From NCBI RefSeq assembly GCF_014191305.1, contig NZ_JACHWJ010000002.1:124001-188000 (forward strand): 64,000 nt of DNA, in the 5' to 3' direction. The position numbers were made by a program, and so were the translations under genes. The stretch's first letter is position 1, and each line of letters begins with the position of its first letter. This document shows, piece after piece, positions 19,502-60,185 of the stretch. The notes beneath the pieces were generated by a model. The model was not told the DNA's origin. It saw only the letters and a program-made list of their open reading frames with translations, and did not search any database. The stretch is from Pseudoclavibacter helvolus. Its GTDB lineage: Bacteria > Actinomycetota > Actinomycetes > Actinomycetales > Microbacteriaceae.

Positions 19502-19540
19502 GGCATCTGCTCCCTGGGGGTCGTGGGGTTCTCGGGGGTG

Positions 19541-19589: not shown

Positions 19590-19635
19590 GATCTCACGTA
19601 CAATGACGCCGGTCGTCGAACCCGAGGAGAGCCGC

Positions 19636-24004: not shown

Positions 24005-24021
24005 CTCTCCGGGTCACCAGG

Positions 24022-24058
24022 TCGGTCAGGATGCGCGAATCGCGCGCATCCTGACCGA
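24022..24058 (+). terminator. Hairpin after the surface-protein gene
   Basis: Perfect 16-bp arms (TCGGTCAGGATGCGCG) with a 5-base loop, 18 bp past the stop. Its right arm runs into the first TetR operator. Confidence 0.75.
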
Positions 24059-24084
24059 TCGGTTGAAGTCTGACCGTTCGGTCA
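24052..24084 (+). promoter_or_regulatory. Tandem TetR operators
   Basis: TGACCGATCGGTTG (24052-24065) and TGACCGTTCGGTCA (24071-24084) share the half-site TGACCG, centres 19 bp apart, and lie 13 bp before the TetR start. This is the classical autoregulatory position. The shared spacing suggests two dimers on one DNA face, repressing the tetR-mmpL-yhgE transcript. Confidence 0.65.
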
Positions 24085-24097
24085 ATAGACTCTCCGG

Positions 24098-24712
24098 GTG
24101 AGCGAGCAGCAACCCCAGCCAGATGATCCCAGGGGCGAATCCCAGCAGGCCGAGCGGACCCGATCGGCGCACCGCCAACACCCGACCGATCTCCTGAAGC
24201 AGGCGGCGCTCGTCGAGTTCGCTGCGCACGGCTACGAGGGGGCCTCCCTGCAGGAGATCGCGAGCAAGGCTGGCTACACGAAAGCCAACCTGCTCTACCA
24301 CTTCGGCTCGAAGCAGGGCCTTTTCGAACAGGCCGTGCTCGAGGCCCTCGGCGCGTTCGAGGAGCTCGTCGACTCGCTGCAGCACCTGGACATCGGCGCC
24401 GAGGACAAACGACTCGTCGGCCCGTTCGTCGACTTCCTCCTCCAGCACCGCCTCGCCGTGCACATGTTCGTGAACCACCGCAGCACCGGAGCTGGCGAGT
24501 TCATCGCGACAAGGGTCGACCCCATCATCGAGCGGCTCGTTGCGGCGCTGTCCGACGACGACCCCGACCGTGCGCTTCGCATCGCCATCGGGCTTGCTGG
24601 TGTCACGTACTGCCTCGCCAACGAGAACATCCCTGGCGAAGCCCGCACGCAGGAGCCGACACGCGAGGAGCTCGTCGCCGCGCTCACCTTCATCTCGGCC
24701 ACGCGCCGGTAG
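24098..24712 (+). CDS. TetR-family transcriptional regulator
   Basis: 204-aa repressor with an N-terminal HTH at about 33-78 (LLKQAALVEFAAHGYEGASLQEIASKAGYTKANLLYHFGSK) and a variable helical ligand domain. It starts with GTG, and the first 30 residues are a Gln/Pro/Arg-rich extension. It lies 22 bp before the MMPL exporter gene on the same strand, so it most likely controls that gene and itself in response to an exported compound. Confidence 0.92.
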   Translation: MSEQQPQPDDPRGESQQAERTRSAHRQHPTDLLKQAALVEFAAHGYEGASLQEIASKAGYTKANLLYHFGSKQGLFEQAVLEALGAFEELVDSLQHLDIGAEDKRLVGPFVDFLLQHRLAVHMFVNHRSTGAGEFIATRVDPIIERLVAALSDDDPDRALRIAIGLAGVTYCLANENIPGEARTQEPTREELVAALTFISATRR

Positions 24713-24734
24713 CCGACAGGCAGGCAACAGACTC

Positions 24735-31075: not shown

Positions 31076-31801
31076 TCAGGCGAGACGGTATTCCAGCTCG
31101 GGGCGTCCGGGCGTGCCGTACCTCGGGGTGCGCTCCGCCGCTGACGTGTCGACGAGGTGCTCGAGATAGCGGCGGGCGGTGACACGAGAGAGTGCCAGCT
31201 GCTCCGAGAGCTCCTTCGCGGAGATGCCGTTTCCCTCCCCGAGCGACCGAAGCGCAGCGATGACGCTTGCGAGGGTCTCGCTCGTGAGGCCCTTGGGGAG
31301 GCTCGCCTGCGGAGTGGCCTGACGGAGCGAAGCGAGCGTCTGGTCGACCTCGTCCTGGCTCGACACGACGTGGTCGAAGAGGCCGGCCCGGTATTCGCGC
31401 AGCGCCTCCAGCTTCTCCGCGAAGGTCTGGAACGTGAACGGCTTGAGCAGGTAGTGGGCGATGCCGAGCGAAACCGCCTGCTTGACGGTTGCCGCCTCGC
31501 GCACGGCAGTCACGGCGATGATGTCGACGTCGTGCCCCTCAGCCCTGAGCCGCCTGGCGACGTCGATGCCCGTCGCGTCCGGCATGTTGATGTCGAGCAG
31601 GACCACGTCGATGCGCTCGGCGTCACCCGAGGCGGCCGCGCGGACGGCGAGGATCGCCGCGGACGCGGTGCCCGCGACACCGACGCCACGGAACCCTGGC
31701 AGTCGGTCGACGTACGAGGCGTGAGCCTGCGCCGTGAGCGCCTCGTCGTCCACAACGAGTACGTGCAGGGATGCTGGATGCGCTGCCCGGTCACCGGTCA
31801 T
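31076..31801 (-). CDS. Response regulator of the CitB/DcuR type
   Basis: 241-aa regulator. The receiver domain (residues 12-130) has the acidic pocket in VLVVDDEALT, the phospho-acceptor in VVLLDINMPD and the conserved Lys in YLLKPFTFQTF. The C-terminal HTH (about 180-230; GISAKELSEQLALSRVTARRYLEHL) is the type found in CitB, DcuR and DctR. ATG 31801 overlaps the kinase gene end by 11 bp, so the two are coupled. The adjacent divergent symporter gene is its most likely target. Confidence 0.9.
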   Translation of the reverse strand: MTGDRAAHPASLHVLVVDDEALTAQAHASYVDRLPGFRGVGVAGTASAAILAVRAAASGDAERIDVVLLDINMPDATGIDVARRLRAEGHDVDIIAVTAVREAATVKQAVSLGIAHYLLKPFTFQTFAEKLEALREYRAGLFDHVVSSQDEVDQTLASLRQATPQASLPKGLTSETLASVIAALRSLGEGNGISAKELSEQLALSRVTARRYLEHLVDTSAAERTPRYGTPGRPELEYRLA

Positions 31802-33422
31802 CTGCCGTCTTCTCCACTTCTGAGACCCCGCTCGGGGTGAGCTCCGAATCGCGCACCGGCAGGCAGACGGTGAACGCTGACCCGTCGACGTCGATGCTTC
31901 CGCCCGACCTGCGCACGGCCTGCCGGACGAGCGCCAGCCCGACGCCGCGGCCCTTGCCCGGCTTCCCAGAGACGCCGAAGTCGAAGATCCTCCCGAGGAA
32001 CTCCGGGTCCGGCCCAGCTCCGCTGTCACTCACCTCGATGAGCACCTCCCCGTCGAGTTCCTCGACGAGCACCCGCACCGCCGGGGCTGGCGTCGCGCGG
32101 GCGGCCTCGAGGGCATTGTCGATGAGGTTGCCGACGATCGTGATGAGGTCCCGCGCCGAGGCGCTCGCGGGAACCCGGGCAGGCAGGTGCAGGTCGAAGC
32201 GCACATCCATCTCGTCGGCCTGCGACGACTTGCCGAGGAGCAGTGCGACGAGCACCGGGTCCTCGATGGCGCGCACGAGGCGGTCAGCAAGCTCCTGGCT
32301 GACATCGAGCGTGGAGCTCGCGAGCCGCATCGCCTCGTCTGGCTGCCCGAGCTCGATGAGCGCGATGATCGTGTGGAGGCGGTTCGCGAACTCGTGAGCC
32401 TGCGAGCGGAGTGCCGCCGCGAGGGTCTGCGAGGTCTCGAGCTCGCCGCTCAGCTCCTCGATGCGGGAGTGGTCGCGGAGCGTGACGACCGTGCCCGCGA
32501 AGCGCGGCGCATCCTGACCGGGCCCACGGGTCACGACGGCCTCGCAGTTCACGACAAGCACGTGGCGTTCGGTCACGACGATCTCGTCGACGACGGCGTC
32601 TCCCCGCAGCATGACGTCGCTCAGGACCTCCGGAACGTTGAGGTCGCGCACCGGCTGCGGGGTGGCCTGCGGGTCGAAAGGCGCCAGGCCGAGGTACTCG
32701 GCGGCGACCACGTTGGTGAGCGCGAGCCTGCCCTTCGTGTCGATGAGCACAAGCCCCTCGTCGATCGAACGAAGCACACCCTCGTAGTAGGCGAACATGC
32801 GGGACAGGTCCTCCGGGCCGCGGTTATCGGTCACCCGCCGCAGGTATCGGCTCAGCGCCCAGGCGCCCGCGCCGCCGATGAGCAGGGCGCCAAGCGCGGA
32901 CCACAGGATCAGCGTGATGCGCGAACCGGTCGCGACGTGCGCGTTCGACACGGTGACGCCGGCCGAGACGAGAGCCACGACCTCGCCGTCGTCCCAGATG
33001 GGGGCGACGGCGCGCACAGAAGGGCCGAGTGTTCCCGTGTAGGTCTCGGTGAAGGTCGAGCCCCTGAGGGCCGAGTCGATATTGCCCTGGAACAGCCCGC
33101 CGATCTCCTCCGGGTTGCGGTGCGTGATGCGCACCCCGCTCGTGTCCATGATCGTGATGAAGTCGATCCCCGTGGAGTCGGAGATGGTGATCGCGTACGG
33201 CTGGAGGGTGCTTGTGGGGTCCGCCACCTGCAGCTGCTCGACGACAAACGGATCGTGGGCGATCGTCTCGGCGACGGCCAGGCTGCGCAGCGCGGCGTCG
33301 TCCTCCGCCTCTCGGCGTGCGTCCGCCCACACGACGGCCACCCCAATGCCGGTGAGCGCGAGGATGGCGACGAACTGCAGCACGAAGAGTCGAGTCGCGA
33401 CGCTCCAGCTTGCGAATCGCAC
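31791..33422 (-). CDS. CitA/DcuS-type sensor histidine kinase
   Basis: 543-aa membrane kinase that senses C4-dicarboxylates or citrate in its relatives. One helix (12-32), an extracytoplasmic sCACHE domain (about 35-170, with RITHRNPEEIGG that resembles the ligand pocket region of DcuS/CitA), a second helix (175-195), a PAS domain (220-330), the SpoOB-like dimerisation helix with the His in LRSQAHEFANRLHTI, and a HATPase domain (GRGVGLALVRQAVRRSGG). GTG start preceded by GAGGAGG. It diverges from the dicarboxylate symporter. Confidence 0.9.
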   Translation of the reverse strand: MRFASWSVATRLFVLQFVAILALTGIGVAVVWADARREAEDDAALRSLAVAETIAHDPFVVEQLQVADPTSTLQPYAITISDSTGIDFITIMDTSGVRITHRNPEEIGGLFQGNIDSALRGSTFTETYTGTLGPSVRAVAPIWDDGEVVALVSAGVTVSNAHVATGSRITLILWSALGALLIGGAGAWALSRYLRRVTDNRGPEDLSRMFAYYEGVLRSIDEGLVLIDTKGRLALTNVVAAEYLGLAPFDPQATPQPVRDLNVPEVLSDVMLRGDAVVDEIVVTERHVLVVNCEAVVTRGPGQDAPRFAGTVVTLRDHSRIEELSGELETSQTLAAALRSQAHEFANRLHTIIALIELGQPDEAMRLASSTLDVSQELADRLVRAIEDPVLVALLLGKSSQADEMDVRFDLHLPARVPASASARDLITIVGNLIDNALEAARATPAPAVRVLVEELDGEVLIEVSDSGAGPDPEFLGRIFDFGVSGKPGKGRGVGLALVRQAVRRSGGSIDVDGSAFTVCLPVRDSELTPSGVSEVEKTADDR

Positions 33423-33466
33423 AGCGCCTCCTCTGCGTCGATGGGGGACCGCGGCAGACCTCGGTG

Positions 33467-33494
33467 TTGAGGTGCACGGTGAAAACAGTATGAA
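33467..33494 (+). promoter_or_regulatory. Candidate dctA promoter
   Basis: TTGAGG (-35) and TATGAA (-10) separated by 16 bp, about 90 nt before the symporter start, in the gap divergent from the kinase gene. Confidence 0.4.
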
Positions 33495-33585
33495 CGCAAG
33501 TCGCGATGGTCACAGCGGTGAGCGGATGCTCAATCCATCGTTCCCGACGCAGCTCGCGTCGGATCTCAAGGGAGAGAAGACAGCA

Positions 33586-34965
33586 ATGGCGCTCACATCT
33601 CAGGACACCAAGGCCCCACGCAAGCGTGGCATCGACAAGACCCACTGGCTCTACATCGCCGTCATCATCGCCGTGCTCGCCGGCATCACCGTTGGCCTCG
33701 TCCTCCCGGAGTTCGGGAAGGCCCTCAAGCCCGTCGGCGAGGCGTTCGTGGCGCTCATCAAGATGATGATCGCCCCCATCATCTTCTGCACGATCGTGCT
33801 CGGCGTCGGCTCCATCGCGAAGGCCGCGACGGTCGGCAAGGTCGGCGGGCTCGCGCTCCTCTACTTCATCACGATGTCCACGTTCGCCCTCGGCATCGGC
33901 ATGGTCGTCGGCAACTTCATCCACCCGGGTGAGGGCCTCAATATCGCGAGCGCCACGTACGAGGCGGATGCGTCGAAGAGCGAGGGCACGGCCGACTTCC
34001 TGCTCGGCATCATCCCGACCTCGCTGTTCTCGTCACTCACTGACGGCAGCATCCTCCAGGTGCTGTTCGTGGCCCTGCTCCTGGGCTTCGGTTTGCAGAA
34101 GATGGGCACGAAGGCCGCGCCCATCATCGACGCGATCGCTCAGATCCAGGCGCTCGTCTTCCGCGTGCTCGGCATGATCATGTGGGTCGCTCCGGTCGGT
34201 GCCTTCGGAGCTATCGCCGCGGTTGTGGGAGCTACGGGCATCGACGCGGTCATCGCGCTCGGCACGCTCATGGTCGCCTTCTACATCACCTGCGCCCTCT
34301 TCATCGTGGTGGTGCTCGGCTCGCTGCTCTGGCTCGTCGCCCGCGTCAACATCTTCAAGCTCATGAAGTTCCTCGGCCGCGAGTACCTGCTCATCGTCTC
34401 GACGTCGTCGAGCGAGGTCGCGCTGCCTCGCCTCATCGCGAAGATGGAACACGTCGGCGTATCCAAGTCCGTCGCCGGAATCACGATCCCCACCGGGTAC
34501 TCGTTCAACCTCGACGGCACGGCCATCTACCTGACGATGGCGTCGCTGTTCATCGCCAGCGCCATGGGCACGCCGCTCTCCATCGGCGAGCAGGTGTCGC
34601 TGCTGGTGTTCATGATGATCGCGTCGAAGGGCGCAGCCGGTGTCACCGGCGCCGGACTCGCGACGCTCGCCGGCGGGCTGCAGGCCCACCGCCCCGACCT
34701 CGTCGACGGCGTCGGCGTGATCGTCGGCATCGACCGCTTCATGTCTGAGGCTCGTGCGCTCACGAACTTCACCGGCAACGCAGTCGCGACGGTGCTCGTC
34801 GGAACGTGGACCAAGGAGATCGACAAGCAGCGCGTCGACCTCGTCCTCAGCGGAGGGGCCCCGTTCGACGAGGCCACCATGAACGAAGACGTGCACGGCG
34901 CAACCGACCACTCGCGCGACGCCAAGAGCCAGCAGGTCATCGACCAGGAGCGCGTCACGGCGTAG
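33586..34965 (+). CDS. dctA: Dicarboxylate/amino acid:cation symporter, DctA-like
   Basis: DAACS-family symporter that takes up C4-dicarboxylates (or glutamate/aspartate) with Na+ or H+. Eight transmembrane segments and two re-entrant loops are recognisable. STSSSEVALPRLI is the HP1 serine-rich loop, GYSFNLDGTAIYLT the unwound TM7 NMDGT-type motif and GIDRFMSEARALTNFTGNAVAT the TM8 substrate site with Asp and Arg. Length is 459 aa with a charged tail. AAGGGAGAG lies before ATG 33586. Divergent position to a CitA/DcuS-type system favours a dicarboxylate substrate. Confidence 0.88.
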   Translation: MALTSQDTKAPRKRGIDKTHWLYIAVIIAVLAGITVGLVLPEFGKALKPVGEAFVALIKMMIAPIIFCTIVLGVGSIAKAATVGKVGGLALLYFITMSTFALGIGMVVGNFIHPGEGLNIASATYEADASKSEGTADFLLGIIPTSLFSSLTDGSILQVLFVALLLGFGLQKMGTKAAPIIDAIAQIQALVFRVLGMIMWVAPVGAFGAIAAVVGATGIDAVIALGTLMVAFYITCALFIVVVLGSLLWLVARVNIFKLMKFLGREYLLIVSTSSSEVALPRLIAKMEHVGVSKSVAGITIPTGYSFNLDGTAIYLTMASLFIASAMGTPLSIGEQVSLLVFMMIASKGAAGVTGAGLATLAGGLQAHRPDLVDGVGVIVGIDRFMSEARALTNFTGNAVATVLVGTWTKEIDKQRVDLVLSGGAPFDEATMNEDVHGATDHSRDAKSQQVIDQERVTA

Positions 34966-49958: not shown

Positions 49959-51551
49959 GTGTCAAAGCCCGTCGTTCTGCTTGCCGAGCAGCTTTCCCCC
50001 GCAACCGTGGATGCGCTCGGTCCCGACTTCGAAGTCCGCCAGGTCGACGGCACCGATCGTCCCGCGCTCCTCGAGGCGCTCGCCGAGGCCAACGCGATCC
50101 TCGTGCGCAGCGCGACCCAGGTCGACGCCGAGGCGATCGCCGCGGCCCCGAACCTGAAGATCATCGCCCGCGCCGGCGTCGGCCTCGACAACGTCGACAC
50201 GCCCGCCGCCACGAAGGCAGGCGTCATGGTCGTCAACGCGCCGACCTCGAACATCACCTCGGCGGCCGAACTCGCCGTCGGCCACATCATCTCGCTCGCC
50301 CGCCACATCCCGAACGCCAACGCGTCGATGAAGGCCGGCGACTGGAAGCGCTCGAAGTACACGGGCGTCGAGCTGTTCGAGAAGACCGTCGGCATCGTCG
50401 GCCTCGGCCGCATCGGAACGCTCGTCGTCGACCGCCTCAAGGGCTTCGGCGTGAACCTCGTCGCCTACGACCCCTACGTGACGCCCGCCCGCGCCTCGCA
50501 GCTGGGCGTGCAGCTCCTCAGCCTGGAAGAGCTGATGGCGCAGTCCGACTTCATCACCATCCACATCCCGCGCACGCCGGAGACCACCGGTCTCATCGGC
50601 GAAGCCGAGTTCGCGCTCGCCAGGCCCGAGCTTCGCATCGTGAACTGCTCGCGCGGCGGCATCATCGACGAGAACGCGCTCCGCGACGCCCTCGAGTCCG
50701 GCAAGATCGCCGGCGCGGCCCTCGACGTGTTCGTCACCGAGCCGCCATCGAATCGCGACCTCCTCGACCAGCCGAACCTGCAGCTCACGCCGCACCTCGG
50801 CGCGTCCACCGACGAGGCGCAGGAGAAGGCCGGCGTCTCGGTCGCCCGCTCCGTGCGCCTCGCGCTCGCCGGCGAGCTCGTGCCGGACGCGGTCAACGTT
50901 GCAGGCGGCATCATCGACGAGTACGTGCGCCCCGGCATCCCGCTCATGGAGAAGCTCGGCCAGTTCCTGCAGGGCCTCATCGGCGCCTCTCCCGTCGCCC
51001 TCGACATCGAGGTGCACGGCGAGCTCGCCCGCTACGAGGTGAAGGCGCTGCGTCTCGCCGCGCTCAAGGGCTTCTTCACGAACATCGTCACCGAGCAGGT
51101 CTCCTACGTGAACGCGCCGCTCCTCGCGGAGGAGCGCGGCCTCGACGTGCGCATGAACGTCGACGAGGACAGCGACGAGTACCGCAACGTGCTCACGCTG
51201 CGAGCGACGCTCAGTGACGGCAAGACGGTCTCCGTCTCCGGAACGCTCACGGGCGTGAAGCAGATCGAGAAGCTCGTCGGCATCAACGGCTACAGCATCG
51301 AGGTGCCGCTCGCCGCGCACCACCTCGTCATGGTCTACAGCGACCGCCCCGGTGTCGTCGCCCTCTACGGAGCCGCACTCGGCGAGGCAGGCGTCAACAT
51401 CGCCGGCATGCAGATCGCCCGCGACGAAGAGGGCGGCCAGGCCCTCTCCGTGCTCACGATCGACGAGCCAGCGAGCGACGAGCTGCTCGCGCGCCTCCGC
51501 GACGCGATCGGCGCCTCCGAGCTGCACGAGATCGACATCGTCGAGAGCTAG
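49959..51551 (+). CDS. serA: SerA, D-3-phosphoglycerate dehydrogenase
   Basis: First enzyme of serine synthesis, type I form of 530 aa. Substrate- and NAD-binding domains occupy 1-315 (VGLGRIGTLVVDRLKGFGV; catalytic Glu in PRTPETTG and His in LTPHLGAST). An intervening ASB domain (about 320-450) precedes the C-terminal ACT domain (MVYSDRPGVVALYGAALGEAGVNIAGMQ), the serine sensor. GTG 49959 has GGAGGATT upstream. A -10-like TAAGAT at 49902 suggests its own promoter. Confidence 0.95.
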   Translation: MSKPVVLLAEQLSPATVDALGPDFEVRQVDGTDRPALLEALAEANAILVRSATQVDAEAIAAAPNLKIIARAGVGLDNVDTPAATKAGVMVVNAPTSNITSAAELAVGHIISLARHIPNANASMKAGDWKRSKYTGVELFEKTVGIVGLGRIGTLVVDRLKGFGVNLVAYDPYVTPARASQLGVQLLSLEELMAQSDFITIHIPRTPETTGLIGEAEFALARPELRIVNCSRGGIIDENALRDALESGKIAGAALDVFVTEPPSNRDLLDQPNLQLTPHLGASTDEAQEKAGVSVARSVRLALAGELVPDAVNVAGGIIDEYVRPGIPLMEKLGQFLQGLIGASPVALDIEVHGELARYEVKALRLAALKGFFTNIVTEQVSYVNAPLLAEERGLDVRMNVDEDSDEYRNVLTLRATLSDGKTVSVSGTLTGVKQIEKLVGINGYSIEVPLAAHHLVMVYSDRPGVVALYGAALGEAGVNIAGMQIARDEEGGQALSVLTIDEPASDELLARLRDAIGASELHEIDIVES

Positions 51552-51572
51552 ACGCCCAGCGTCACCCACACG

Positions 51573-51632
51573 AACGCTGCCTGCGTTCCCAACCGCGCGA
51601 GAGATCGCCGCGGTTGGAACGCAGGCAGCGTT
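51573..51632 (+). terminator. serA terminator
   Basis: Long hairpin: AACGCTGCCTGCGTTC and AACCGCG form the left side, pairing with 51609-51632 except for one bulged C, then TTGTTCTTT. It closes the ilv-serA block before the lasso-peptide cluster. Confidence 0.85.
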
Positions 51633-52035
51633 GTTCTTTGGGCGCAGGGTGTGGGTGATCGGGTGTGTGCGGCTTCGGGGTGGGGAGCACCGTCGGCGCT
51701 GAGTTGGGATGGAACACGCATTGTCGCGTGGGATCAGGCTGAGCGTCCAAGGCTCGACCTTTCGAATGATGTTCCGTGAACCGCGATCGTGCAACGCTAC
51801 CCACATGCACAGAACAGTCTGGCAGGAGAACAGGGGCGGTGAACTTCCCTAACCCCATTCTCGTTCCTTTCAAAACATGTGCAAAAGCGGTCCGAGAATG
51901 CTCACGCCACGGCGCAATACTGGAATTTGGAGACTTGTATGACGCATCATGGTAAAAGCTTGACGTAAAGTGCCTCCTTTTCCGGTTTAGAACGGCGGCC
52001 AATGAAGGCCGTGACTCACTATCAAGGGGGAAAAG
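51633..52035 (+). promoter_or_regulatory. Upstream region of the lasso-peptide cluster
   Basis: 403 bp with no convincing gene and lower GC than its surroundings, especially 51840-51990. TTGACG at 51960 and TTTAGA at 51986 are the best promoter-like pair, but the 20-bp spacer is long. AAGGGGG, eight bases before the precursor ATG, is its ribosome site. A 47-codon frame at 51709-51852 lacks a ribosome site and lasso features. Confidence 0.4.
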
Positions 52036-52164
52036 ATGTCCAATTACATTGCGCCGAAAATCGAGCAGGTCGGATCGTACCGGAAGCTCACGAACGGGGT
52101 CTGGTTCGGTCGCTGGCGCGACATCTTCGGCGGGCGCGCTTTCATCAAGGTGACGGTCGGCTGA
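52036..52164 (+). CDS. Lasso peptide precursor (A), propeptin-like
   Basis: 42-residue precursor, a RiPP. Leader residues 1-20 show the exact actinobacterial pattern YxxPxIxxxGxxxxxT: Tyr4, Pro7, Ile9, Gly13 and Thr19, the Thr being penultimate before cleavage. The core starts at Gly21 and reads GVWFGRWRD in its first nine residues; Asp29 (core position 9) would close a 9-residue macrolactam with Gly1. The tail after Asp has IFGG, then RAF, and ends KVTVG. Propeptin, a known Gly1-Asp9 lasso peptide from Microbispora, shares RD, FGG and FI at the same places. AAGGGGG precedes the ATG. The product and activity are inference. Confidence 0.88.
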   Translation: MSNYIAPKIEQVGSYRKLTNGVWFGRWRDIFGGRAFIKVTVG

Positions 52165-52173
52165 GTCTCGACG

Positions 52174-52227
52174 TTCGAGCGAGGGGGCGGTGCGCTCATC
52201 GCGTGCATCGCTCCCTCGTGCCTCGAA
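52174..52227 (+). promoter_or_regulatory. Intercistronic hairpin between precursor and cyclase genes
   Basis: TTCGAG and CGAGGG (52174-52185) pair with CCCTCG (52213-52218) and CTCGAA (52222-52227), leaving a TGC bulge. It begins 9 bases after the precursor stop and its right arm touches the cyclase ribosome site. Such hairpins commonly raise precursor over enzyme expression in RiPP operons, by partial termination or by stabilising the short mRNA. Confidence 0.5.
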
Positions 52228-52238
52228 GGGGAAAGGGG

Positions 52239-53741
52239 GTGAGGGGCATCTCAACGCTCAGTGCAGTCCGGTCGGCATTCTCGACGTCCACGCTCTGCTA
52301 TTGGACGATGGAAGACGGGGTCGTTCGCACCAGTGCATCCCAGCTCGACCTGCGTGGCTCCGCTCCACTCGACCCCGATCGACTGTCGCTGGAGACCTGC
52401 CCCAACCTGCCGAGCGTCTTCCGCCTCCGCCCGTTCTGGGCGAACGTCCGGGTGGTCGCGCCAGGTCACGACCTGGTTGAGGCTGAGGGATGCGTGGGCG
52501 ATCGACGCTGGTGGCAGGCGGGCGAGCACCAAGATGCGACCTTCGAGGAGGCGGCGGGCCGATTGCGGCACGCGCTCCGCACCGCGGTCGAGCGGCGCCT
52601 CGGCCCAGGCGGGCTCCTTGGGGCAGATCTCTCAGGGGGGATGGACTCCACGTCGCTCGCCTACCTGGCTGAGGCGGTCGGGGGCCAGGTTGCTCACTTC
52701 CACGCAGGCACTGCGGATGCACAGAACCAGGACTCGCACTTCGCGCGGCGGGCCGCGGCGGAGCTGCGCGGCGAGTTCATGGAGCTGCCGTCCTTCACAT
52801 CGACGCTCGACGCGTTCGCCACGACAACGCGCAACGGGGAACGCTCCGGGCGCAGCGTCTCCGGGCCGCCGGCCTGGCGAGCCAATATGCCGCATCTGCA
52901 GATGCTGTTCGAGCAGGAGCGTGCACGAGATATTCGCACGCACATCAATGGGCTGGGCGGTGACGAGCTGTTCGCCCTGCAGCCGGCGGTCATGTCGTCG
53001 TTGGTGCAGTCCGGCGCCGTTGCTGTGGGGCTGCGATCCGCCGCTCGTCTGGCACGTGCGCAGCGGTGGCCGGTGCTGCGGACTCTTGCGGCTGTCTGCT
53101 CCACGCGCACCCTCGGGGCCGAATTGGTGGCGCGTGTCCATGCAGACGCGGGTCCGCACGCTGACGCGTTCGGTTGGGCCCCAGGGTTCGGGGTCTCGCG
53201 TTTCGCCTCTGCGCAGACACGGGCGAGGGTCGAGGCGCAGATCCGCGGTCAGGCAAGTGTCGGGATCGAGCCGCACTTCCCCGACAAGGCCCGGCACCAG
53301 ATGGCCGAGTCGGTCATGTTCCAGGGCGAAGTCGTGCGCCAGGTCAACGAGGCGTTCGCAGACGAGGGGGTCCGCTGGGAAGCGCCCTTTCTGGATGACG
53401 AGATCCTGCGCCTCATGTTCGGTCTCTCCTCGTCGATATCAGTGGGTCAGCGGCATTCGAAGCCCCTGCTGGCGGCGAGCATGAAGGGGCTCGCGCCGGA
53501 CTGGATATTCAGTCGTGAAGACAAGGGTGAGTACAGTGCGGATCTCTTCACTGCCTTCGCTTCCAGAATCGATGGCTTGAAATCGATGTTCCGCGAGAGT
53601 TTCCTTATCGATCTGGATGTCCTGAATCCGGACGCGATTCTCAATGCATTGGAGATGCCCATGTTGAAGACGCAAGACCTCTTCGAAATCGAGCAGCTCG
53701 CGACCCTTGAGCTCTGGGTGCGGGAGGTGGAAGGCGCATGA
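52239..53741 (+). CDS. Lasso peptide macrolactam synthetase (C), asparagine synthetase-like
   Basis: ATP-dependent enzyme that adenylates the ring Asp side chain and forms the isopeptide bond with Gly1. It resembles asparagine synthetase B. The N-terminal glutaminase-like part is short (about 1-105) and lacks a catalytic Cys2. The synthetase domain has the PP loop SGGMDSTSLAYLA (132-144) and INGLGGDELFAL. GTG 52239, preceded by AAGGGG at 7-base spacing, gives 500 aa; the frame is open back to 52002, but that part overlaps the precursor gene. It overlaps B1 by 4 bp. Confidence 0.88.
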   Translation: MRGISTLSAVRSAFSTSTLCYWTMEDGVVRTSASQLDLRGSAPLDPDRLSLETCPNLPSVFRLRPFWANVRVVAPGHDLVEAEGCVGDRRWWQAGEHQDATFEEAAGRLRHALRTAVERRLGPGGLLGADLSGGMDSTSLAYLAEAVGGQVAHFHAGTADAQNQDSHFARRAAAELRGEFMELPSFTSTLDAFATTTRNGERSGRSVSGPPAWRANMPHLQMLFEQERARDIRTHINGLGGDELFALQPAVMSSLVQSGAVAVGLRSAARLARAQRWPVLRTLAAVCSTRTLGAELVARVHADAGPHADAFGWAPGFGVSRFASAQTRARVEAQIRGQASVGIEPHFPDKARHQMAESVMFQGEVVRQVNEAFADEGVRWEAPFLDDEILRLMFGLSSSISVGQRHSKPLLAASMKGLAPDWIFSREDKGEYSADLFTAFASRIDGLKSMFRESFLIDLDVLNPDAILNALEMPMLKTQDLFEIEQLATLELWVREVEGA

Positions 53742-54023
53742 GCGGCCGAATGAGCGACGCCGATATCTATACCTTGTCGCCGACCTGCTCGTTTGAGCAG
53801 GAGGGGGAAGGGGTTGTGCTCTTCGATGCCGGTGGCGGAACGTACTGGCGCGGCAACGCGACCGCCCGGCGGGTGCTCGAGCTCACCGTCCACGGATGCA
53901 CGCGGGGGGGAAGCGGTCGAACGGCTGGAGCGCGAATACGGCCACTCGCCAGGAATGCGAGACGACGTGCGAGACCTCCTGGCCGTCCTGGTCAGAGCGC
54001 GCATCGCGAAGCGCAACGCATGA
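53738..54023 (+). CDS. Lasso peptide RRE protein (B1, PqqD-like), frameshifted at a G7 run
   Basis: Leader-recognition element that binds the precursor and presents it to B2. From ATG 53738 the sequence reads a PqqD-like winged fold: DIYTLSPTCSFEQEGEGVVLFDAGGGTYWRGNATA, then VLELTVHG. At 53904-53910 seven G's break the frame. With six G's it continues RGEAVERLEREYG and DVRDLLAVLVRARIAKRNA to TGA 54021, a normal 94-aa B1 whose stop overlaps B2. As given, the first frame instead reads through low-complexity sequence and enters B2 in frame. A sequencing error, slippage or real mutation are all possible. Confidence 0.7.
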
Positions 54024-54439
54024 GCCTTCCGCTGAGCGCCCAGCCTTCCATCACGACGAGAGGCCGTCGCGCCCTGACCGTGCGCTGCACGGTCTCGGTC
54101 GCGTTCCTGATCACCTACGCCAGGCCGCGGCGGATCAGGCGTCTGCTCGTCGAGCTGAGCCGGGGAGCCCGCCCGTCGACGCGTGAGCAGGCTGAAGCGG
54201 TGCGCGCGGAGGTGTGCGGCGTGAGTGAGCGCTGCGCTGGAGAGGGCTGTCTGCAGCGCTCCATCGCGACGGTCCTCCTCTGCCGCCTCGACGGCCACGC
54301 GCCGAATTGGTGCTCGGGCTACCGGACAGGTCCGTTCGTCGCGCATGCCTGGGTGGAGGCGGATGGCATGCCCGTGTCGGAACCCCCTGAGGTAGCCAGC
54401 TACAAGAGAGTCCTCACGACCGAACAGGGCCGGCCGTGA
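54020..54439 (+). CDS. Lasso peptide leader peptidase (B2, transglutaminase-like)
   Basis: Cysteine protease of the McjB/B2 type that removes the leader after Thr-Xaa. The 139-aa product has a basic helical N-terminus and the catalytic core: Cys77 in GEGCLQRSIATVLLCRL, His109 in FVAHAWVEADG and a nearby acidic residue, probably Asp115. ATG 54020 is shared with the restored B1 stop (ATGA). In the given sequence the same frame is also open from 53738, which would make a B1-B2 fusion with a nonsense linker. Confidence 0.85.
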   Translation: MSLPLSAQPSITTRGRRALTVRCTVSVAFLITYARPRRIRRLLVELSRGARPSTREQAEAVRAEVCGVSERCAGEGCLQRSIATVLLCRLDGHAPNWCSGYRTGPFVAHAWVEADGMPVSEPPEVASYKRVLTTEQGRP

Positions 54440-55230
54440 CCGCGTTCCTCCGATCGCTCCGAGCGGAAGCGATCAAGTTCACCTCACTGCGTTCGTCGCG
54501 GATCGCGATCCTCGCAACCGTCGCGGTCGTGACCAGTGCCGCGTACGGCGTCACCGCGCTGACGCACCAGGCGATGATCTCCGGGGATGTCAGCGCTGCT
54601 GGCGGGCTCGAGCCTGAGTCGGCCTTCCTGATGGTGGTGCACTACGGACAGATCGGGGCGATCTTCCTGGGCGCGAGCGTCTTCGCGCAGGAGCGCGACA
54701 ACGGTGCCGTGGCCTCCTCGCTGCTCGCCGTCCCCGACCGGCGCACCTTCTTCTTCGCGAAGGCGCTCTCCGCGCTCGCGTTCGGCTTCGCGGCCGCCAT
54801 TCCCGCCGTTCTCGGGAGCTACGCAGCCCGCTGCGCTGTCCTCGACTGTCGCGCGGTCGGCAGCCTGACGAGCCTTCCCGGTGGAGACCTCCGCCTGCTC
54901 GCGGGGTACATCGTCTACTGGTCGCTCATCAGCCTGCTCTCGTTCCTGATCTCGTCGGCGTTCCGCAGCGGCATCGTCGGGCTCTGCGCCATGCTGGCGC
55001 TCACGCTCGCCATCTCGCCGTACCTGCTCGAGTTCACTTCGGCCGCCAGGTTCCTGCCCGACCAGGCTGGCGCTCAACTGCTGCTCCAGGACGCTCCGCT
55101 TACTGGGGACCTGGGGCCGATGCTCGGGCTGCTCGTGCTGCTGAGCTGGATCGGCGTCTTCGCCGTCGCTGGATTTCTCTCGGTCCGCTCCTGGGCCGTC
55201 AACCACGCAGAAAAGGGGGTGGGTTCATGA
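54436..55230 (+). CDS. ABC-2 type permease, LanE/G-like (lasso cluster)
   Basis: 264 aa with six hydrophobic segments. The block YGQIGAIFLGASVFAQERDNGAVASSLLAVPDR, with the conserved E-G pair, is the coupling region of ABC-2 permeases and is also seen in the second permease two genes on, so the two are paralogues. GTG 54436 overlaps the B2 stop by 4 bp and the end overlaps the ATPase start. The two permeases and the ATPase likely form a self-protection or export complex; this role is inferred from LanFEG systems. Confidence 0.82.
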   Translation: MTAFLRSLRAEAIKFTSLRSSRIAILATVAVVTSAAYGVTALTHQAMISGDVSAAGGLEPESAFLMVVHYGQIGAIFLGASVFAQERDNGAVASSLLAVPDRRTFFFAKALSALAFGFAAAIPAVLGSYAARCAVLDCRAVGSLTSLPGGDLRLLAGYIVYWSLISLLSFLISSAFRSGIVGLCAMLALTLAISPYLLEFTSAARFLPDQAGAQLLLQDAPLTGDLGPMLGLLVLLSWIGVFAVAGFLSVRSWAVNHAEKGVGS

Positions 55231-55952
55231 TCGAAGTCGAGAACCTGACGAAGATCTACGGGAAGCGGACCGCGATAGAGTCCGTGACCTTCGAAGCCAG
55301 AGCAGGCAGGGTGACGGGACTGCTCGGTCCGAACGGGGCGGGGAAATCGACGACGATGCGCATCCTGCTCGGCCTCGACCGAGCGACGTCCGGGCGCGCC
55401 TCGGTGCTCGGCTCCGAGTACCGGACCCTGCGGCGTCCCCTGACCCGCGTCGGCGCGCAGTTCGACGGGTCGGGCGCCCATCGCGGACGCACGGCGAGAG
55501 CGCACCTCCGCTGGATGGCGGCGAGCAACGGGATCTCGCCCACGCGCATCCCGGAAACGCTGCAGCTCGTCGGGCTGTCGGACGTCGCTGACCGCCGCGT
55601 CGGGACCTTCTCTCTCGGCATGGGGCAGCGTCTGGGCATCGCGGCCGCGCTCCTCGGCGACCCGGAGGTCGTGATCCTGGACGAGCCGATGAACGGGCTC
55701 GACCCGGAGGGCATTCGCTGGATTCGGGATCTTGCGCGCTCGCTGGCGGGTTCCGGACGCACGGTGCTCATCTCGTCGCACCTCATGGGGGAGATGCAGT
55801 CCATGGCTGATGACCTCGTCGTGATGGCGCGCGGAACGGTCATCAGGGCAGGGGCAGCGACGAGCCTGGTCTCGGGGTACGACAGCCTCGAGCACGCGTA
55901 CTTCGCCTGGACGCGGGGCCGCGCCGATCATGTTGCGGGTGATGCCGCGTGA
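55227..55952 (+). CDS. ABC transporter ATPase, LanF-like (lasso cluster)
   Basis: 241-aa nucleotide-binding protein of the drug/bacteriocin export type. Walker A GPNGAGKSTT (about 34-43), signature FSLGMGQRLGIAAALLG with Gln-Arg, Walker B VVILDEPMNGLDPEG and the H loop in ISSHLMGEM. The signature FSLGMGQ differs from the standard LSGGQ, as in bacitracin/lantibiotic immunity ATPases. Overlaps both permease genes by 4 bp. Confidence 0.9.
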   Translation: MIEVENLTKIYGKRTAIESVTFEARAGRVTGLLGPNGAGKSTTMRILLGLDRATSGRASVLGSEYRTLRRPLTRVGAQFDGSGAHRGRTARAHLRWMAASNGISPTRIPETLQLVGLSDVADRRVGTFSLGMGQRLGIAAALLGDPEVVILDEPMNGLDPEGIRWIRDLARSLAGSGRTVLISSHLMGEMQSMADDLVVMARGTVIRAGAATSLVSGYDSLEHAYFAWTRGRADHVAGDAA

Positions 55953-56719
55953 AGATGGCGCTGGCGTCGGAGTCCTGGAAGCTCTTCACCCTCAGAGCGG
56001 TCCTCATCACGCTGGCCGTGAGCCTCGTCGTGCCGGTCCTGATGGCCGCCGTCACCGCCCCCTCTGTCGGCGAGGGACTGCGCGTCGACGACCCGATGCT
56101 CGCAGCGGGGACGACCCCTGAGGTCGTAGGCCTCGAATGGATCGCGCTCGGCCAGATCGGCGTCATCATCGTGGGGGTGCTCGCGGGAAGCGGTGAGTTC
56201 TCCGGCGGCCAGATCCAGACCTCGCTCGTCGCCGTGCCGAATCGGCTCAGGTTCGTCCTCGCGAAGATCTCGGTCCTCACCGTCACCGTGACGTTGCTCG
56301 GAGCGGTGACGATCCCGCTGCTCAGCATCTGCAGCCAGCTCGGTCTCGGATCGCTCAGCGTGCTCAGCGACGGCGTACCCGCCTCCCTCCTGGTGCGCTG
56401 GCTGGGCGGAGTCGTCTACTGGACGGGAATCGCGTTGATCGGGTTCAGCTTCGCTGTCCTGGTCCGTCAGGCCCTGGTGCCGTTGCTCGTGCTCATCGCG
56501 GTCTCGCAGATCTCGCTTGTCCTGGTCTTCCTGACGCCGTGGGCGAAGTTCCTGCCCACGATCGCCGGCGCGCAGCTGTTCGATGCGGCTGCCGTGACCG
56601 CGGCGAACCCGGCGGCATCGCTCGACCCCGGGAGCGCGTACGCGGTGTTCCTCCTCACGGTCGTGGCGCTGGTCTGCTCCGCAGCCGTCGCGTTCTGTCG
56701 ACGGGATGTGCGCGCATGA
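55949..56719 (+). CDS. Second ABC-2 type permease, LanG/E-like (lasso cluster)
   Basis: 256 aa with six hydrophobic segments. LGQIGVIIVGVLAGSGEFSGGQIQTSLVAVPNRLRFVLAK aligns with the same block of the first permease (GQIG, E, SL-AVP-R, AK), so the transporter is probably a heterodimer. GTG 55949 overlaps the ATPase stop and its own stop overlaps the exporter start in ATGA. Confidence 0.82.
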   Translation: MKMALASESWKLFTLRAVLITLAVSLVVPVLMAAVTAPSVGEGLRVDDPMLAAGTTPEVVGLEWIALGQIGVIIVGVLAGSGEFSGGQIQTSLVAVPNRLRFVLAKISVLTVTVTLLGAVTIPLLSICSQLGLGSLSVLSDGVPASLLVRWLGGVVYWTGIALIGFSFAVLVRQALVPLLVLIAVSQISLVLVFLTPWAKFLPTIAGAQLFDAAAVTAANPAASLDPGSAYAVFLLTVVALVCSAAVAFCRRDVRA

Positions 56720-58482
56720 GTCTCACGCGGGAGAAGCGGTCGGCGGCACTCGCCGGCTTGTTCCGCCACGTCTTCGTGCAGAAGTCGACGCTCGTCGTCA
56801 TCGTGGTCCTCAGCATCTGCGGCTCGGGGGCGGCGCTCGCGCAACCGTGGCTCGTGGGCCAGATCATCGACCGTGTCGGCGCGAGGGAGTCGCTCGGGAT
56901 GCTTCCGTGGCTGATCGTCGCCCTCCTCATCGTGGGCGGGCTGATCTCGGGCTTCCTGCAGTACCTCATCCAGAGGACGGCCGAGGTCGCCATCCGATCA
57001 GCTCGGGAGGGCCTCGTCGACCACATCCTGCGTCTTCCCATCGCGACCCTCGATCGTCACCGTGTCGGTGATCTGGTCTCCCGCGTGAACGCAGACACCT
57101 CGGTCATCCGCAGCATGCTTACGCAGGGGTTCGTGGAGTCGATCGCCGGCGTCGTGACCTTGATCGGCGCGCTCGCGGCGATGTGGCTGATAGACCCGCT
57201 GCTGCTCGTGGTCTCACTCGGCGTCGCACTCGTCGCCGTCTTCCTCGTCGTGATGATGACGTCGCGGATCGAGGAGGCCAGCTTGGGAGTGCAGCAGGCG
57301 GTCGGTCGCCTGTCCTCCTCGCTGGATCGGGCCATCCGTGCCGTGCGGACCGTGCGGGCGGCGAACATGACGGGCTCGGAGTCGCAGCGCGTGAAGGAGG
57401 ACGTGGAAGCCAGCTGGGCCGCCGGCCTTCGGGTCGCACGGATCACCGCGACGCTCGCGCCAGTCTCGTCCGCCGCCATGCAGGCCACGTTCCTGGTGGT
57501 CCTCGGACTCGGCGGCTACCAGGTCGCGGCGGGTGCGCTGACCGTGTCCGACCTGGTCTCCTTCATCTTGTTCCTGTTCCTGATGATCATGCCGCTCGGG
57601 CAGATCTTCGGAACGATCAGCGCTGTCGGTGAGGCCGTGGGCGGGATGGTGCGCATCAGCGAGGTCATGGAGCTGCCGTTGGAGGCGGATGCCGGAGTTG
57701 CCACCGTTACCGCTCCTGCGACCGGTGGGAGCAATGTCCTGGAGTTCGAGGACGTCGCCTTCTCCTATCACGACGCTCCCGAGCGGGAATCCGAGGACCC
57801 CGCGACGCTCGCGGCGGTCAGCTTTGAGGTGCCGCGAGGTGAGCGCGTCGCCCTCGTCGGGCCGTCGGGGGCAGGGAAGAGCACGCTCCTGCAGCTCATC
57901 GCTCGCTTCTACGATGTGGACGGCGGGACGATCCGCTTCAACGGAGTCGATACCGCGGGCATCTCCCGGGAGGCCGTGCGGTCGCGGATCGCCTATGTCG
58001 AGCAGGAGGCGCCCGTTCCCGCGGGGACCCTGAGGGACGCGGTGACACTTGGCTCGGAGGCGCACACCGACACCGATATCCGCGAGCTGCTGGGCGAGCT
58101 GGACCTCGTGGGAGTGCTCGAGCGCTCTCCGCTCGGTCTCGACGCCGATCTGGGGGAAGGCGGCGTGCTGCTCTCAGGCGGTGAGCGTCAGCGCCTGGCG
58201 ATCGCACGCGCGCTGCTCCTGAAGCCCGACCTGCTGCTGCTCGACGAGTCGACATCGCACCTCGACGGGGTGAACGAAGAGCGCGTGCAGGCGGCGATCG
58301 CTCGCAGGGCGGGACGGTACGCGATGCTGGTTGTGGCCCATCGGCTCGCCACGGTGCGATCTGCGGATCGGATCCTCGTGCTGGACGCGGGACGAATCGT
58401 CGATTCGGGACGCCACGACGAGCTCATGCAGACGTCGGAGCTCTACCGGGACCTGGCGCGCAACCAGCTTCTCCCGCTCTGA
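56716..58482 (+). CDS. ABC exporter (D) of the lasso cluster
   Basis: 588-aa half-transporter with permease and ATPase fused, the usual lasso peptide exporter. Six helices occupy about 25-310. The ATPase part has Walker A GPSGAGKSTLLQ, signature LSGGERQRLAIARALL and Walker B LLLLDESTSHLD. There is no N-terminal C39 peptidase domain, as expected since B2 removes the leader. ATG 56716 is chosen by the 4-bp overlap; the frame is open earlier. It is the last gene of the operon and converges on the next gene with a 13-bp gap. Confidence 0.9.
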   Translation: MSLTREKRSAALAGLFRHVFVQKSTLVVIVVLSICGSGAALAQPWLVGQIIDRVGARESLGMLPWLIVALLIVGGLISGFLQYLIQRTAEVAIRSAREGLVDHILRLPIATLDRHRVGDLVSRVNADTSVIRSMLTQGFVESIAGVVTLIGALAAMWLIDPLLLVVSLGVALVAVFLVVMMTSRIEEASLGVQQAVGRLSSSLDRAIRAVRTVRAANMTGSESQRVKEDVEASWAAGLRVARITATLAPVSSAAMQATFLVVLGLGGYQVAAGALTVSDLVSFILFLFLMIMPLGQIFGTISAVGEAVGGMVRISEVMELPLEADAGVATVTAPATGGSNVLEFEDVAFSYHDAPERESEDPATLAAVSFEVPRGERVALVGPSGAGKSTLLQLIARFYDVDGGTIRFNGVDTAGISREAVRSRIAYVEQEAPVPAGTLRDAVTLGSEAHTDTDIRELLGELDLVGVLERSPLGLDADLGEGGVLLSGGERQRLAIARALLLKPDLLLLDESTSHLDGVNEERVQAAIARRAGRYAMLVVAHRLATVRSADRILVLDAGRIVDSGRHDELMQTSELYRDLARNQLLPL

Positions 58483-58495
58483 GCCGCTGGTGTCG

Positions 58496-59029
58496 TCAGT
58501 GCCCGAGGCTCGCCTTGAGCAGGGAGATGGCGACGCCGATGAGGGCGAGGCCGACGCCGGCGGCGAAGGTGCGGAACGAGGGCCGCTCGCCGCGGATGCG
58601 CTGCACCGTGAAGCCCATCGCAGCGAGTCGCACGATGATGACGATCTCCGCGACGAGCTGCGCCGTCTCGCCGTCGATGACGCCGAGTGCGGCCACTCCG
58701 AGGATCGCGGCCGGGATGGACGCAGCCGACGCGATCGGCACCGCATCCCGCAGCTCGTGCAGGAACTCGATGTGCGCCGTGCGCTCGCGGCGGTCACCGA
58801 CCTCGGCCCTCGTGGAGTGGCCGACCGCGTCGGCGATGAGGTGCGCGAGGAGCGTCGTGCCCCCGGTCGCGAGGACCACGATCGCACCTTCGCTGGGATT
58901 CTCGCCCGCGTGCACGAGCCCGAGGAGCGTCGCGAGGATGATGATGTTGCCGTACACGTAGGCCGTGAGGCGGCTGGCGGCGCGCGCACGCGGCAGATCG
59001 TCCTTGCGGCGCAGGATCGCGGTGGTCAT
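58496..59029 (-). CDS. Five-helix membrane protein, unknown
   Basis: 177 aa. Hydrophobic segments at about 22-40, 48-68, 98-116, 122-140 and 152-172; between the second and third is a charged loop with ADAVGHSTRAEVGDRRERTAH. It is of a type found widely in actinobacteria and annotated as hypothetical. ATG 59029. It is convergent with the lasso exporter and divergent from leuB by 73 bp, and so marks the right edge of the lasso cluster. Confidence 0.7.
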   Translation of the reverse strand: MTTAILRRKDDLPRARAASRLTAYVYGNIIILATLLGLVHAGENPSEGAIVVLATGGTTLLAHLIADAVGHSTRAEVGDRRERTAHIEFLHELRDAVPIASAASIPAAILGVAALGVIDGETAQLVAEIVIIVRLAAMGFTVQRIRGERPSFRTFAAGVGLALIGVAISLLKASLGH

Positions 59030-59102
59030 GACGACAGACGCTAGTCCGGCAGCGGCCTAAACTGGGGGAGCCGCGACCGCCGTCGGCAGGAAAGGACGCC
59101 TC

Positions 59103-60185
59103 GTGCCGGAACGTGCAGCGCCAGAGAAGCTCGACATCGCCGTCATCGCGGGCGACGGGATCGGCCCGGAGGTCACCGCGCAGGCACAGCGTGCGCTGCA
59201 AGCTGCGCTGCCAGAGGGCGTCGAGCTGACGCTCACCGAGTACCCGTTCGGCGCGGCCCGCTACCTGGAGACCGGCGAGATCATCTCGGATGCGGAGCTG
59301 CACGCGCTCGCGCAGCACGACGGCATCCTCCTCGGCGCCGTGGGTGGCGACCCGGCCGACGAGCGGCTGGCCGGGGGCATCATCGAGCGCGGCCTGCTGC
59401 TGAAGCTGCGCTTCGCGTTCGACCACTACATCAACCTGCGCCCTGGCGCGATCTCGCCCGGGGTGAAGACCCCGCTGAGCGACCCCGGCGAGGTCGACTT
59501 CGTCGTCGTGCGCGAGGGCACGGAGGGGCCGTACGTCGGCAACGGCGGCGTCGTCCGCGTCGGCACCCCGCAGGAGATCGCAACCGAGGTCTCCGTGAAC
59601 ACGGCCTACGGTGTCGAGCGCACCGTGCGCTACGCGTTCGAGAAGGCGAAGTCCCGCCCGCGCAAGCACCTCACGCTCGTGCACAAGAAGAACGTGCTCG
59701 TCAACGCGGGCGTGCTCTGGCAGCGCGTCGTCGACCGCGTCTCCGCCGACTACCCTGACGTCGCCGTCGAGTACCTGCACGTCGACGCTGCTACGATCTT
59801 CTTCGTCACGAACCCGTCGCGGTTCGACGTGATCGTCACCGATAACCTGTTCGGTGACATCGTGACCGACCTTGCCGCAGCCATCACCGGCGGCATCGGG
59901 CTGGCGGCCTCGGGCAATATCAATCCCGACGGCGAGTTTCCCAGCATGTTCGAGCCCGTCCACGGCTCGGCACCAGACATCGCGGGCCTCGGCAAAGCCG
60001 ACCCGACGGCGGCGATCCTCTCCGTCGTTCTGCTGCTCGAGCACTTCGGACTCATCGACGCAGCCGCAGCCCTCGAGGCAGCCTGCCGCGCCGACCTCGC
60101 CTCGCGAGGCGGGGCATCCAGGAGCACGTCCGAGATCGGCGACGCCATCATCTCCCGACTGACCGCGCAAGGAACCAACGCATGA
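59103..60185 (+). CDS. leuB: LeuB, 3-isopropylmalate dehydrogenase
   Basis: NAD-dependent oxidative decarboxylase of leucine synthesis. The substrate and metal motifs are visible: [31 protein letters not shown] with its Arg residues, [15 protein letters not shown], and [33 protein letters not shown]. The sequence [12 protein letters not shown] carries the catalytic Lys. 360 aa, GTG start with AGGAAAGGA upstream. Its stop overlaps the ilvE start by 4 bp. Confidence 0.95.

What the first reader, a model, noticed from the sequence alone, without database searches (positions are those of the whole stretch)
52036..58482. Complete lasso-peptide cluster with a propeptin-like precursor
The 42-residue precursor has every expected leader residue (Tyr4, Pro7, Ile9, Gly13, Thr19) and a core with Gly1 and Asp9. 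Its core shares RD, FGG and FI positions with propeptin but differs in most ring residues (Trp, Phe, Gly, Arg, Trp in place of propeptin's Pro/Trp/Trp/Asp/Tyr) and ends in an extra KVTVG-type tail. The precursor is short enough to be missed by ORF callers. The predicted product, a Gly1-Asp9 ring with a 13-residue tail and Arg/Trp/Phe flanking the ring closure, is probably a new lasso peptide.
Basis: partly seen in the sequence, partly recalled or inferred. Interest (0 to 1): 0.85.

Follow-up and report, generated by a model that had tools for sequence, protein, structure and literature searches.

The report
Broken lasso-peptide cluster with kept transporter
A Pseudoclavibacter bacterium carries the genes for a new knotted (lasso) peptide, but one gene needed to make it is interrupted as sequenced, and two close relatives have only the transporter genes that may protect against it.

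Summary
The lasso precursor is real: 42 residues at 52036-52164, above the cut-off of NCBIfam's lasso leader model, followed by cyclase C, RRE protein B1, leader peptidase B2, a LanFEG-like ABC transporter (P1-N-P2) and exporter D. The cluster is not complete as sequenced: B1 changes frame at a G7 run (53904-53910), the only homopolymer of 7 or more in the window, and no second B1 was found. Pseudoclavibacter sp. AY1H1, with an identical 22-residue core, has an unbroken B1 but a split C, again at the only G7 run of its contig. At the same site two other species have only P1-N-P2 and a third none of the genes. Against AY1H1, maturation genes are less constrained than transport genes (dN/dS 0.22 versus 0.12, p = 0.0002); but among the window's and the two transporter-only genomes P1-N-P2 is itself less constrained than housekeeping genes. 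Best reading: a new class II-type lasso peptide whose production is decaying while a transporter is kept. Sequencing error at the G runs is the main rival. The ring resembles Streptococcus plasmid precursors at least as much as propeptin.

The parts
52036..52164 (+). precursor A (leader 1-20, core 21-42)
   Evidence: lasso_leader_L3 22.7 bits, cut-off 19; core identical in AY1H1
52239..53741 (+). cyclase C, 500 aa, GTG start inferred; short form that aligns from residue 118 of the 623-aa G026 cyclase; the S. salivarius one is annotated with 501 aa
   Evidence: PF00733 E 6e-25; best NCBIfam match macrolact_Ik_Al 143.8 bits, below its cut-off of 300
53738..54023 (+). RRE protein B1, interrupted: 5' piece and 3' piece lie in different frames
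   Evidence: two tblastn pieces with the AY1H1 B1; PqqD pieces; no other copy found in the genome
53904..53910 (+). G7 run where the B1 frame changes; the only homopolymer of 7 or more in the window
53738..54439 (+). open frame of 233 aa that results: B1 N-terminal part, out-of-frame stretch, then B2
54020..54439 (+). leader peptidase B2
   Evidence: NF033537 98.8 bits, cut-off 33; PF13471 E 1.9e-25
54436..55230 (+). ABC permease P1 (LanE/G-like by place and size)
   Evidence: matches P2 at 32% identity; no NCBIfam family; Pfam ABC2_membrane_3 9.6 bits only
55227..55952 (+). ABC ATPase N (LanF-like)
   Evidence: best NCBIfam match TIGR03740 galliderm_ABC 184.3 bits, below cut-off 309.75
55949..56719 (+). 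ABC permease P2 (LanE/G-like by place and size)
   Evidence: PF12730 24.9 bits, cut-off 27
56716..58482 (+). exporter D (permease-ATPase fusion)
   Evidence: PF00664 and PF00005
51713..51817 (+). upstream stretch found again shortly before P1-N-P2 in the transporter-only genome G006 (51713-51775 in G008)

Best explanation
This is a lasso-peptide cluster, order A-C-B1-B2-P1-N-P2-D, with overlapping start and stop codons from C on. In a working copy B1 would bind the leader, B2 cut between Asn20 and Gly21, and C join Gly1 to the Asp9 side chain, giving a ring of 9 and a 13-residue threaded tail (monoisotopic mass 2505.35 computed); D would export it and the LanFEG-like P1-N-P2 would expel it as immunity. 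In this strain the B1 frame is broken, so production is probably off, while D and P1-N-P2 have open frames. The cluster looks like one that is losing production and keeping transport: two species of the genus are in a transporter-only state at the same site. Shown: the gene content, the frame change in the assembly, the transporter-only and gene-free sites, the weaker constraint on maturation genes against AY1H1. Inferred: ring, mass, immunity role, loss of production, direction of change.
For: Family hits for A, C, B2, D. B1 in two frames and no second copy found. AY1H1 has C in two frames. Among 46 compared window ORFs of 120 aa or more covering 55 kb, three showed two frames against AY1H1: C, and two whose second frame is an N-terminal extension (codon-position check). 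G006 and G008 hold intact P1-N-P2 and no C, B2 or D at the site, and no precursor or C match in their genomes. In G006 the match begins about 33 bases before P1, within the end of B2, which points to deletion. G005 has none of the genes at the site. Pooled dN/dS window-AY1H1: C, B1 and B2 0.223; P1, N, P2 and D 0.120; serA, leuB and ilvE 0.101; maturation versus transport p = 0.0002, transport versus housekeeping p = 0.78. P1 relatives above 90% identity were found in 4 of 398 family genomes, all of this genus.
Against: Both genomes are drafts and both breaks lie in G runs, where sequencing can err; no reads were available. Constraint on P1-N-P2 is not uniformly high: dN/dS against housekeeping genes is 0.251 versus 0.058 for G006-G008 (p = 0.00015), 0.171 versus 0.036 for window-G008 (p = 0.00025) and 0.164 versus 0.064 for window-G006 (p = 0.004), and equal only in the three comparisons with AY1H1; so the transporter may be relaxing too, or the divergence may be recent. 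Maturation dN/dS of 0.22 is still purifying, and maturation proteins may simply evolve faster. The core is unchanged in two species, as expected if the product still matters. G026 goes the other way: its C, B1 and B2 frames are open and exporter D is the broken gene. The LanF-like hit is below its curated cut-off. B2 and D were not searched genome-wide in G006 and G008 (one search failed). Nothing was measured.
Confidence: 0.5

Rival explanations
1. The cluster is complete and working; the B1 break (and the C break in AY1H1) is an assembly or sequencing error in a G run.
For: Both breaks lie in G runs; core 22 of 22 identical and all compared genes have dN/dS below 1.
Against: In about 55 kb of compared genes no other within-gene frame break was established (one N-terminal case in AY1H1 stays undecided), yet both breaks hit maturation genes within the same 2.4 kb; sister species with the transporter alone show that the production genes are absent elsewhere at this site.
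Confidence: 0.27
2. Reversible switching: slippage at the G run turns production on and off (contingency locus), or polymerase or ribosome slippage makes enough full B1.
For: The window and the 86-kb AY1H1 contig each have exactly one homopolymer of 7 or more, and it sits at the break (a second-order Markov model of the window gives 3.95 on average).
Against: The G run is not at the same place or in the same gene in the two species, and neither has a run at the other's site; a gained G in a shorter run would itself create the only G7.
Confidence: 0.08
3. The 233-aa open frame acts as a fused B1-B2 protein, as in proteobacterial McjB (recalled).
For: No stop occurs between the B1 start and the B2 end.
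Against: The second half of the RRE, which matches PqqD 34-66, is replaced by an out-of-frame stretch.
Confidence: 0.04
4. P1-N-P2 is not immunity to this peptide but a general transporter that shares the operon (can hold together with the readings above).
For: Below the curated LanF cut-off; closest solved sequences are ABCA-type ATPases; weaker constraint than housekeeping genes in three of six species pairs (my odds were raised from 0.15 for this).
Against: LanF-like ATPases with two permeases lie in the same cluster region as RD-FGG lasso precursors in G026, G717 and two Streptococcus plasmids too; in G268 the ATPase was found but no permease.
Confidence: 0.2

Closest known systems
Propeptin (GYPWWDYRDLFGGHTFISP) and actinokineosin (GYPFWDNRDIFGGYTFIG), class II lasso peptides; sequences from the table in PMC12427821 (passages)
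   Same: Gly1, Arg8, Asp9, Phe11, Gly12, Gly13, Phe16, Ile17 (with actinokineosin also Phe4 and Ile10)
   Different: Ring positions 2-7 all differ from propeptin; longer KVTVG tail; 8 of 19 and 10 of 18 positions identical
Precursors on Streptococcus salivarius YU10 plasmid pSsal-YU10 (two) and S. equinus FDAARGOS_251 plasmid (one); annotated as putative RiPP precursor or not annotated; I found no paper on them
   Same: G1, G5, aromatic 7, R8-D9, F11, GGRA, extended basic and hydrophobic tail; 501-aa cyclase and LanFEG-like triplet in S. salivarius
   Different: Different phylum; B2 and D joined in one 740-aa gene product; two-component system present; 11 of 21, 11 of 22 and 10 of 21 core positions identical; S. 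salivarius proteins 22-48% identical
LanFEG lantibiotic immunity transporters
   Same: ATPase plus two permeases of about 260 aa; best NCBIfam match is the lantibiotic protection ATPase
   Different: Below the family cut-off; beside a lasso, not a lantibiotic, cluster
Microcin J25 cluster (McjD as exporter and immunity; PMC13352647, passages)
   Same: precursor, peptidase, cyclase, ABC exporter
   Different: Separate B1 and B2, and a second transporter

Membership tests
lasso peptide biosynthetic cluster | precursor with lasso leader and Gly1 plus Asp/Glu at 7-9 | tested here: met
lasso peptide biosynthetic cluster | Asn-synthase-like cyclase C and transglutaminase-like B2 | tested here: met
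lasso peptide biosynthetic cluster | unbroken RRE protein B1 | tested here: not met
   two frames; no second copy found; unbroken in AY1H1. So: a lasso cluster by descent, not shown to be a working one
lasso peptide biosynthetic cluster | dehydrated threaded product | not testable with these tools
   needs mass spectrometry and NMR
propeptin subfamily | core close to GYPxWDxRDxFGG (pattern set by me from the sequences) | tested here: not met
   ring positions 2-7 all differ from propeptin; 3 of 9 ring positions identical
LanFEG immunity transporter | ATPase above TIGR03740 cut-off | tested here: not met
   184.3 bits, cut-off 309.75
LanFEG immunity transporter | ATPase with two short permeases beside a bacteriocin-type cluster | tested here: met
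LanFEG immunity transporter | protects against the cognate peptide | not testable with these tools
   needs a killing assay
phase-variable locus | long repeat tract at a conserved place | tested here: not met
   G7 only, and not shared between the two species

The most novel reading that the evidence does not exclude
One chromosomal site in Pseudoclavibacter carries exchangeable alleles - full lasso cluster, full cluster with production switched off at a G run, transporter only, none - so that producer, immune non-producer and sensitive types coexist and swap by recombination: a lasso-peptide version of the producer, resistant and sensitive game, caught at several steps. My one search for lasso peptides with cheaters, orphan immunity or phase variation (12 of 55 listed) showed no such report.
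Probability: 0.15. Interest if true: 0.7.

Novelty: new member of a known kind. Interest (0 to 1): 0.45.

Why it matters
If right, the locus gives a ready series for testing how antibiotic producers turn into non-producers that keep a small transporter, and it points to a lasso core type (G-x3-G-x-aromatic-RD-[IV]FGGRA plus basic tail) shared by actinobacteria and streptococcal plasmids. For genome mining it is a warning: a cluster that looks complete may be unable to make its product.

Tried and rejected
Precursor searches outside the genus gave many chance matches inside long open frames: 3 of 7 family matches and 9 of 14 order matches; the phylum draw gave only the window's own genome, 1 of 396. 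G598 encodes another lasso type (GVWFG start without RD-FGG); G745, a similar match, was read only on the wrong strand, and G452 was seen only as a translation; none of the three was followed. Rfam: no match at gathering score in 51400-59200. B2 has no solved relative by sequence at E 0.1. A truncated C was considered, since it aligns from residue 118 of the G026 cyclase; kept as a short form because AY1H1 starts at the same place and S. salivarius is annotated with 501 aa. The Q-loop of the ATPase was left open because the alignment is ambiguous there. Orf177 beside the site groups the species differently from both its neighbours and the transporter (9 of 9 informative sites), so the recombination picture is a mosaic. 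The site was looked at only in the 5 of 10 genus genomes that have orf177. Two-frame flags other than C: the two extensions at window 18242-19738 and AY1H1 23782-26643 meet at the same junction, and the long one has changes mostly at first positions, so it is not coding there; the extension of window 33049-34962 lies within the opposite gene 31794-33422; the N-terminus of AY1H1 16889-17665 has too few changes to tell. Literature: 8 of 10 paper searches used. For 'Pseudoclavibacter' with lasso, 10 of 101 papers were listed and only PMC8170138 among them holds the genus name; in the passages I saw it is a 16S identification only, and the other 91 were not seen.
Full report
Observation. NCBIfam lasso_leader_L3 matches residues 4-23 with 22.7 bits against a cut-off of 19. 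The two precursors differ by one leader residue; all 22 core residues are identical although four synonymous changes have accumulated. So the precursor is real and selected.

Cluster. Downstream lie C (52239-53741), B1, B2 (54020-54439), two ABC-2-type permeases (P1, P2) around an ATPase (N), and exporter D (56716-58482). Domain evidence is; from C to D neighbouring genes overlap by start and stop codons. The cluster sits between serA and a small gene (orf177) next to leuB and ilvE (gene names of the neighbours recalled from their sequences).

B1 is broken as sequenced. The AY1H1 B1 is one 94-aa frame, matching TfuB1, PDB 6jx3, at E 4.6e-5, and a lasso PqqD model at 44 bits, below its cut-off of 70. 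Against the window it aligns in two pieces in different frames, residues 1-56 and 58-94, and the change of frame lies at a G7 run, 53904-53910. No other B1 was found: both matches in G000 are the two pieces. The open frame instead runs from the B1 start into B2.

AY1H1 is broken elsewhere. Its C aligns in two frames, residues 1-87 and 87-499, again at a G-rich stretch with a G7 run. In the 64-kb window and in the 86-kb AY1H1 contig this is in each case the only homopolymer of 7 or more of any base; a second-order Markov simulation of the window gave a mean of 3.95 G or C runs of that length (range 0-9 in 20 runs). A gained G in a shorter run would by itself produce that uniqueness, so it is not independent evidence for a switch. 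Neither species has the run at the other's site.

Is it error? Comparing the window with the AY1H1 contig, 46 window ORFs (120 aa or more, dN/dS under 0.4, identity above 60%, overlaps removed) covering 55 kb were kept; three showed two frames, one of them C. In the reverse direction 46 ORFs were kept, two flagged multi-frame and four only partly covered, one of these C. The other flags concern N-terminal extensions; a codon-position check and overlap with opposite genes explain all but one, the N-terminus of AY1H1 16889-17665, which stays undecided. B1 itself is below the length cut. So the two established breaks fall in the same 2.4 kb of precursor and maturation genes. This speaks against random error but does not exclude it, because no reads were at hand.

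Constraint. Pooled window-AY1H1 dN/dS is 0.223 for C, B1 and B2 (pieces compared apart), 0.120 for P1, N, P2 and D, 0.101 for serA, leuB and ilvE. Fisher tests on change counts: maturation versus transport p = 0.0002, maturation versus housekeeping p = 0.00006, transport versus housekeeping p = 0.78. Single genes vary: B1 3' piece 0.54, C 5' piece 0.41, B2 0.31, P1 0.22, B1 5' piece 0.20, C 3' piece 0.15, N 0.12, D 0.12, P2 0.05. Most of C is thus close to normal. A result against my reading: among window, G006 and G008, P1-N-P2 has a higher dN/dS than serA, leuB and ilvE (0.164 versus 0.064, 0.171 versus 0.036, 0.251 versus 0.058; p = 0.004, 0.00025, 0.00015), while in the three pairs with AY1H1 it does not (p 0.74-0.91). 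The frames are open, but strong selection to keep the transporter in the transporter-only species is not shown.

Same site in relatives. Orf177 was found in 5 of 10 genus genomes. G006 and G008 carry intact P1, N and P2 (264, 241, 256 aa) between serA and orf177 and no C, B2 or D there; neither has a precursor or C match elsewhere. B2 and D were not searched through their genomes; the B1 search gave only a weak match in G006 (E 0.08) and none in G008. In G006 the match starts about 33 bases before P1, in the end of B2, and a stretch from upstream of A lies shortly before it, which suggests deletion from a full cluster. G005 has none of the genes at the site. Four-species informative sites over P1, N and P2 group G006 with G008 (28 sites; 7 and 3 for the alternatives), while leuB and ilvE group the window with G008 (23; 3 and 2), serA weakly so (10; 6 and 1), and orf177 groups the window with G006 (9; 0 and 0). 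The site is a recombination mosaic. P1 at above 90% identity was found in 4 of 398 family genomes, all of this genus; the listed others are at 37% or less.

Wider relatives. Of 398 family genomes 7 match the precursor at E 0.01 or better; 4 are lasso precursors and 3 lie inside long open frames. G026 has GYPWWDHRDVFGGRTFIAPW with open C, B1 and B2 but D spread over several frames, which is the opposite of my pattern; G268 has a stop codon inside a propeptin-like core, and only residues 14-72 of the G026 cyclase are matched there. G717, of the same order, has GYPWWDHRDLFGGRTFIG with open C, B2 and D, a LanF-like ATPase and permeases. Two Streptococcus plasmids hold related cores: S. salivarius YU10 with two precursors, C, B1, a B2-D fusion, ATPase and permeases; S. 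equinus FDAARGOS_251 with precursor, ATPase, permeases and a two-component system but no C match on that plasmid (its chromosome was not searched). Of 7 RD-FGG loci looked at (window, AY1H1, G026, G268, G717, S. salivarius, S. equinus), 5 have a broken gene or lack maturation genes and 2 look unbroken. This is a small and uneven sample.

Core. Ungapped identity to the window core: S. salivarius 11 of 21 and 11 of 22, S. equinus 10 of 21, actinokineosin 10 of 18, G268 10 of 20, G717 9 of 18, G026 9 of 20, propeptin 8 of 19; in ring positions 1-9 the streptococcal ones share 5, 5 and 4, actinokineosin 4, propeptin and the other three 3 each. As a fraction, actinokineosin is the highest overall. 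The proteins, by contrast, are closer to the actinobacterial clusters (N 56-58% versus 47-48%). The searched sub-strings of the core are not in the held papers. Propeptin and actinokineosin sequences were read from a table in PMC12427821 (passages). A predicted propeptin-type lasso cluster is reported in Bifidobacterium bifidum (PMC13368793, passages).

Verdict. A genuine new lasso precursor in a cluster that, as sequenced, cannot make its full RRE protein, while export and transporter genes are open. The immunity role and the loss of production are inferences to be tested at the bench.

Noticed in passing
window 51573-51632: A 28-nt inverted repeat (82% complementary, 4-nt loop) follows serA; a stretch like it also follows serA in G006, G008 and G005. 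Probably a terminator or short mobile repeat.
   Followed up: partly
L003:7702-8040; L039:11178-11240; L040:10894-10956: A short repeat (GGGATGGATGC ... CACGCAAG...GG) lies upstream of the cluster in AY1H1 (two copies) and after P2, where D would be, in G006 and G008 (one each); none in the window.
   Followed up: partly
L013:8998-13490: S. equinus plasmid has a lasso precursor with transporter and two-component genes but no cyclase match on that plasmid; might be a sensing or immunity remnant.
   Followed up: partly
L004:1489-1614: G268 precursor has an in-frame TGA within an otherwise propeptin-like core.
   Followed up: no
L016: Genome G598 encodes a lasso-type precursor whose core begins GVWFG, like the window's, but lacks RD-FGG.
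   Followed up: no
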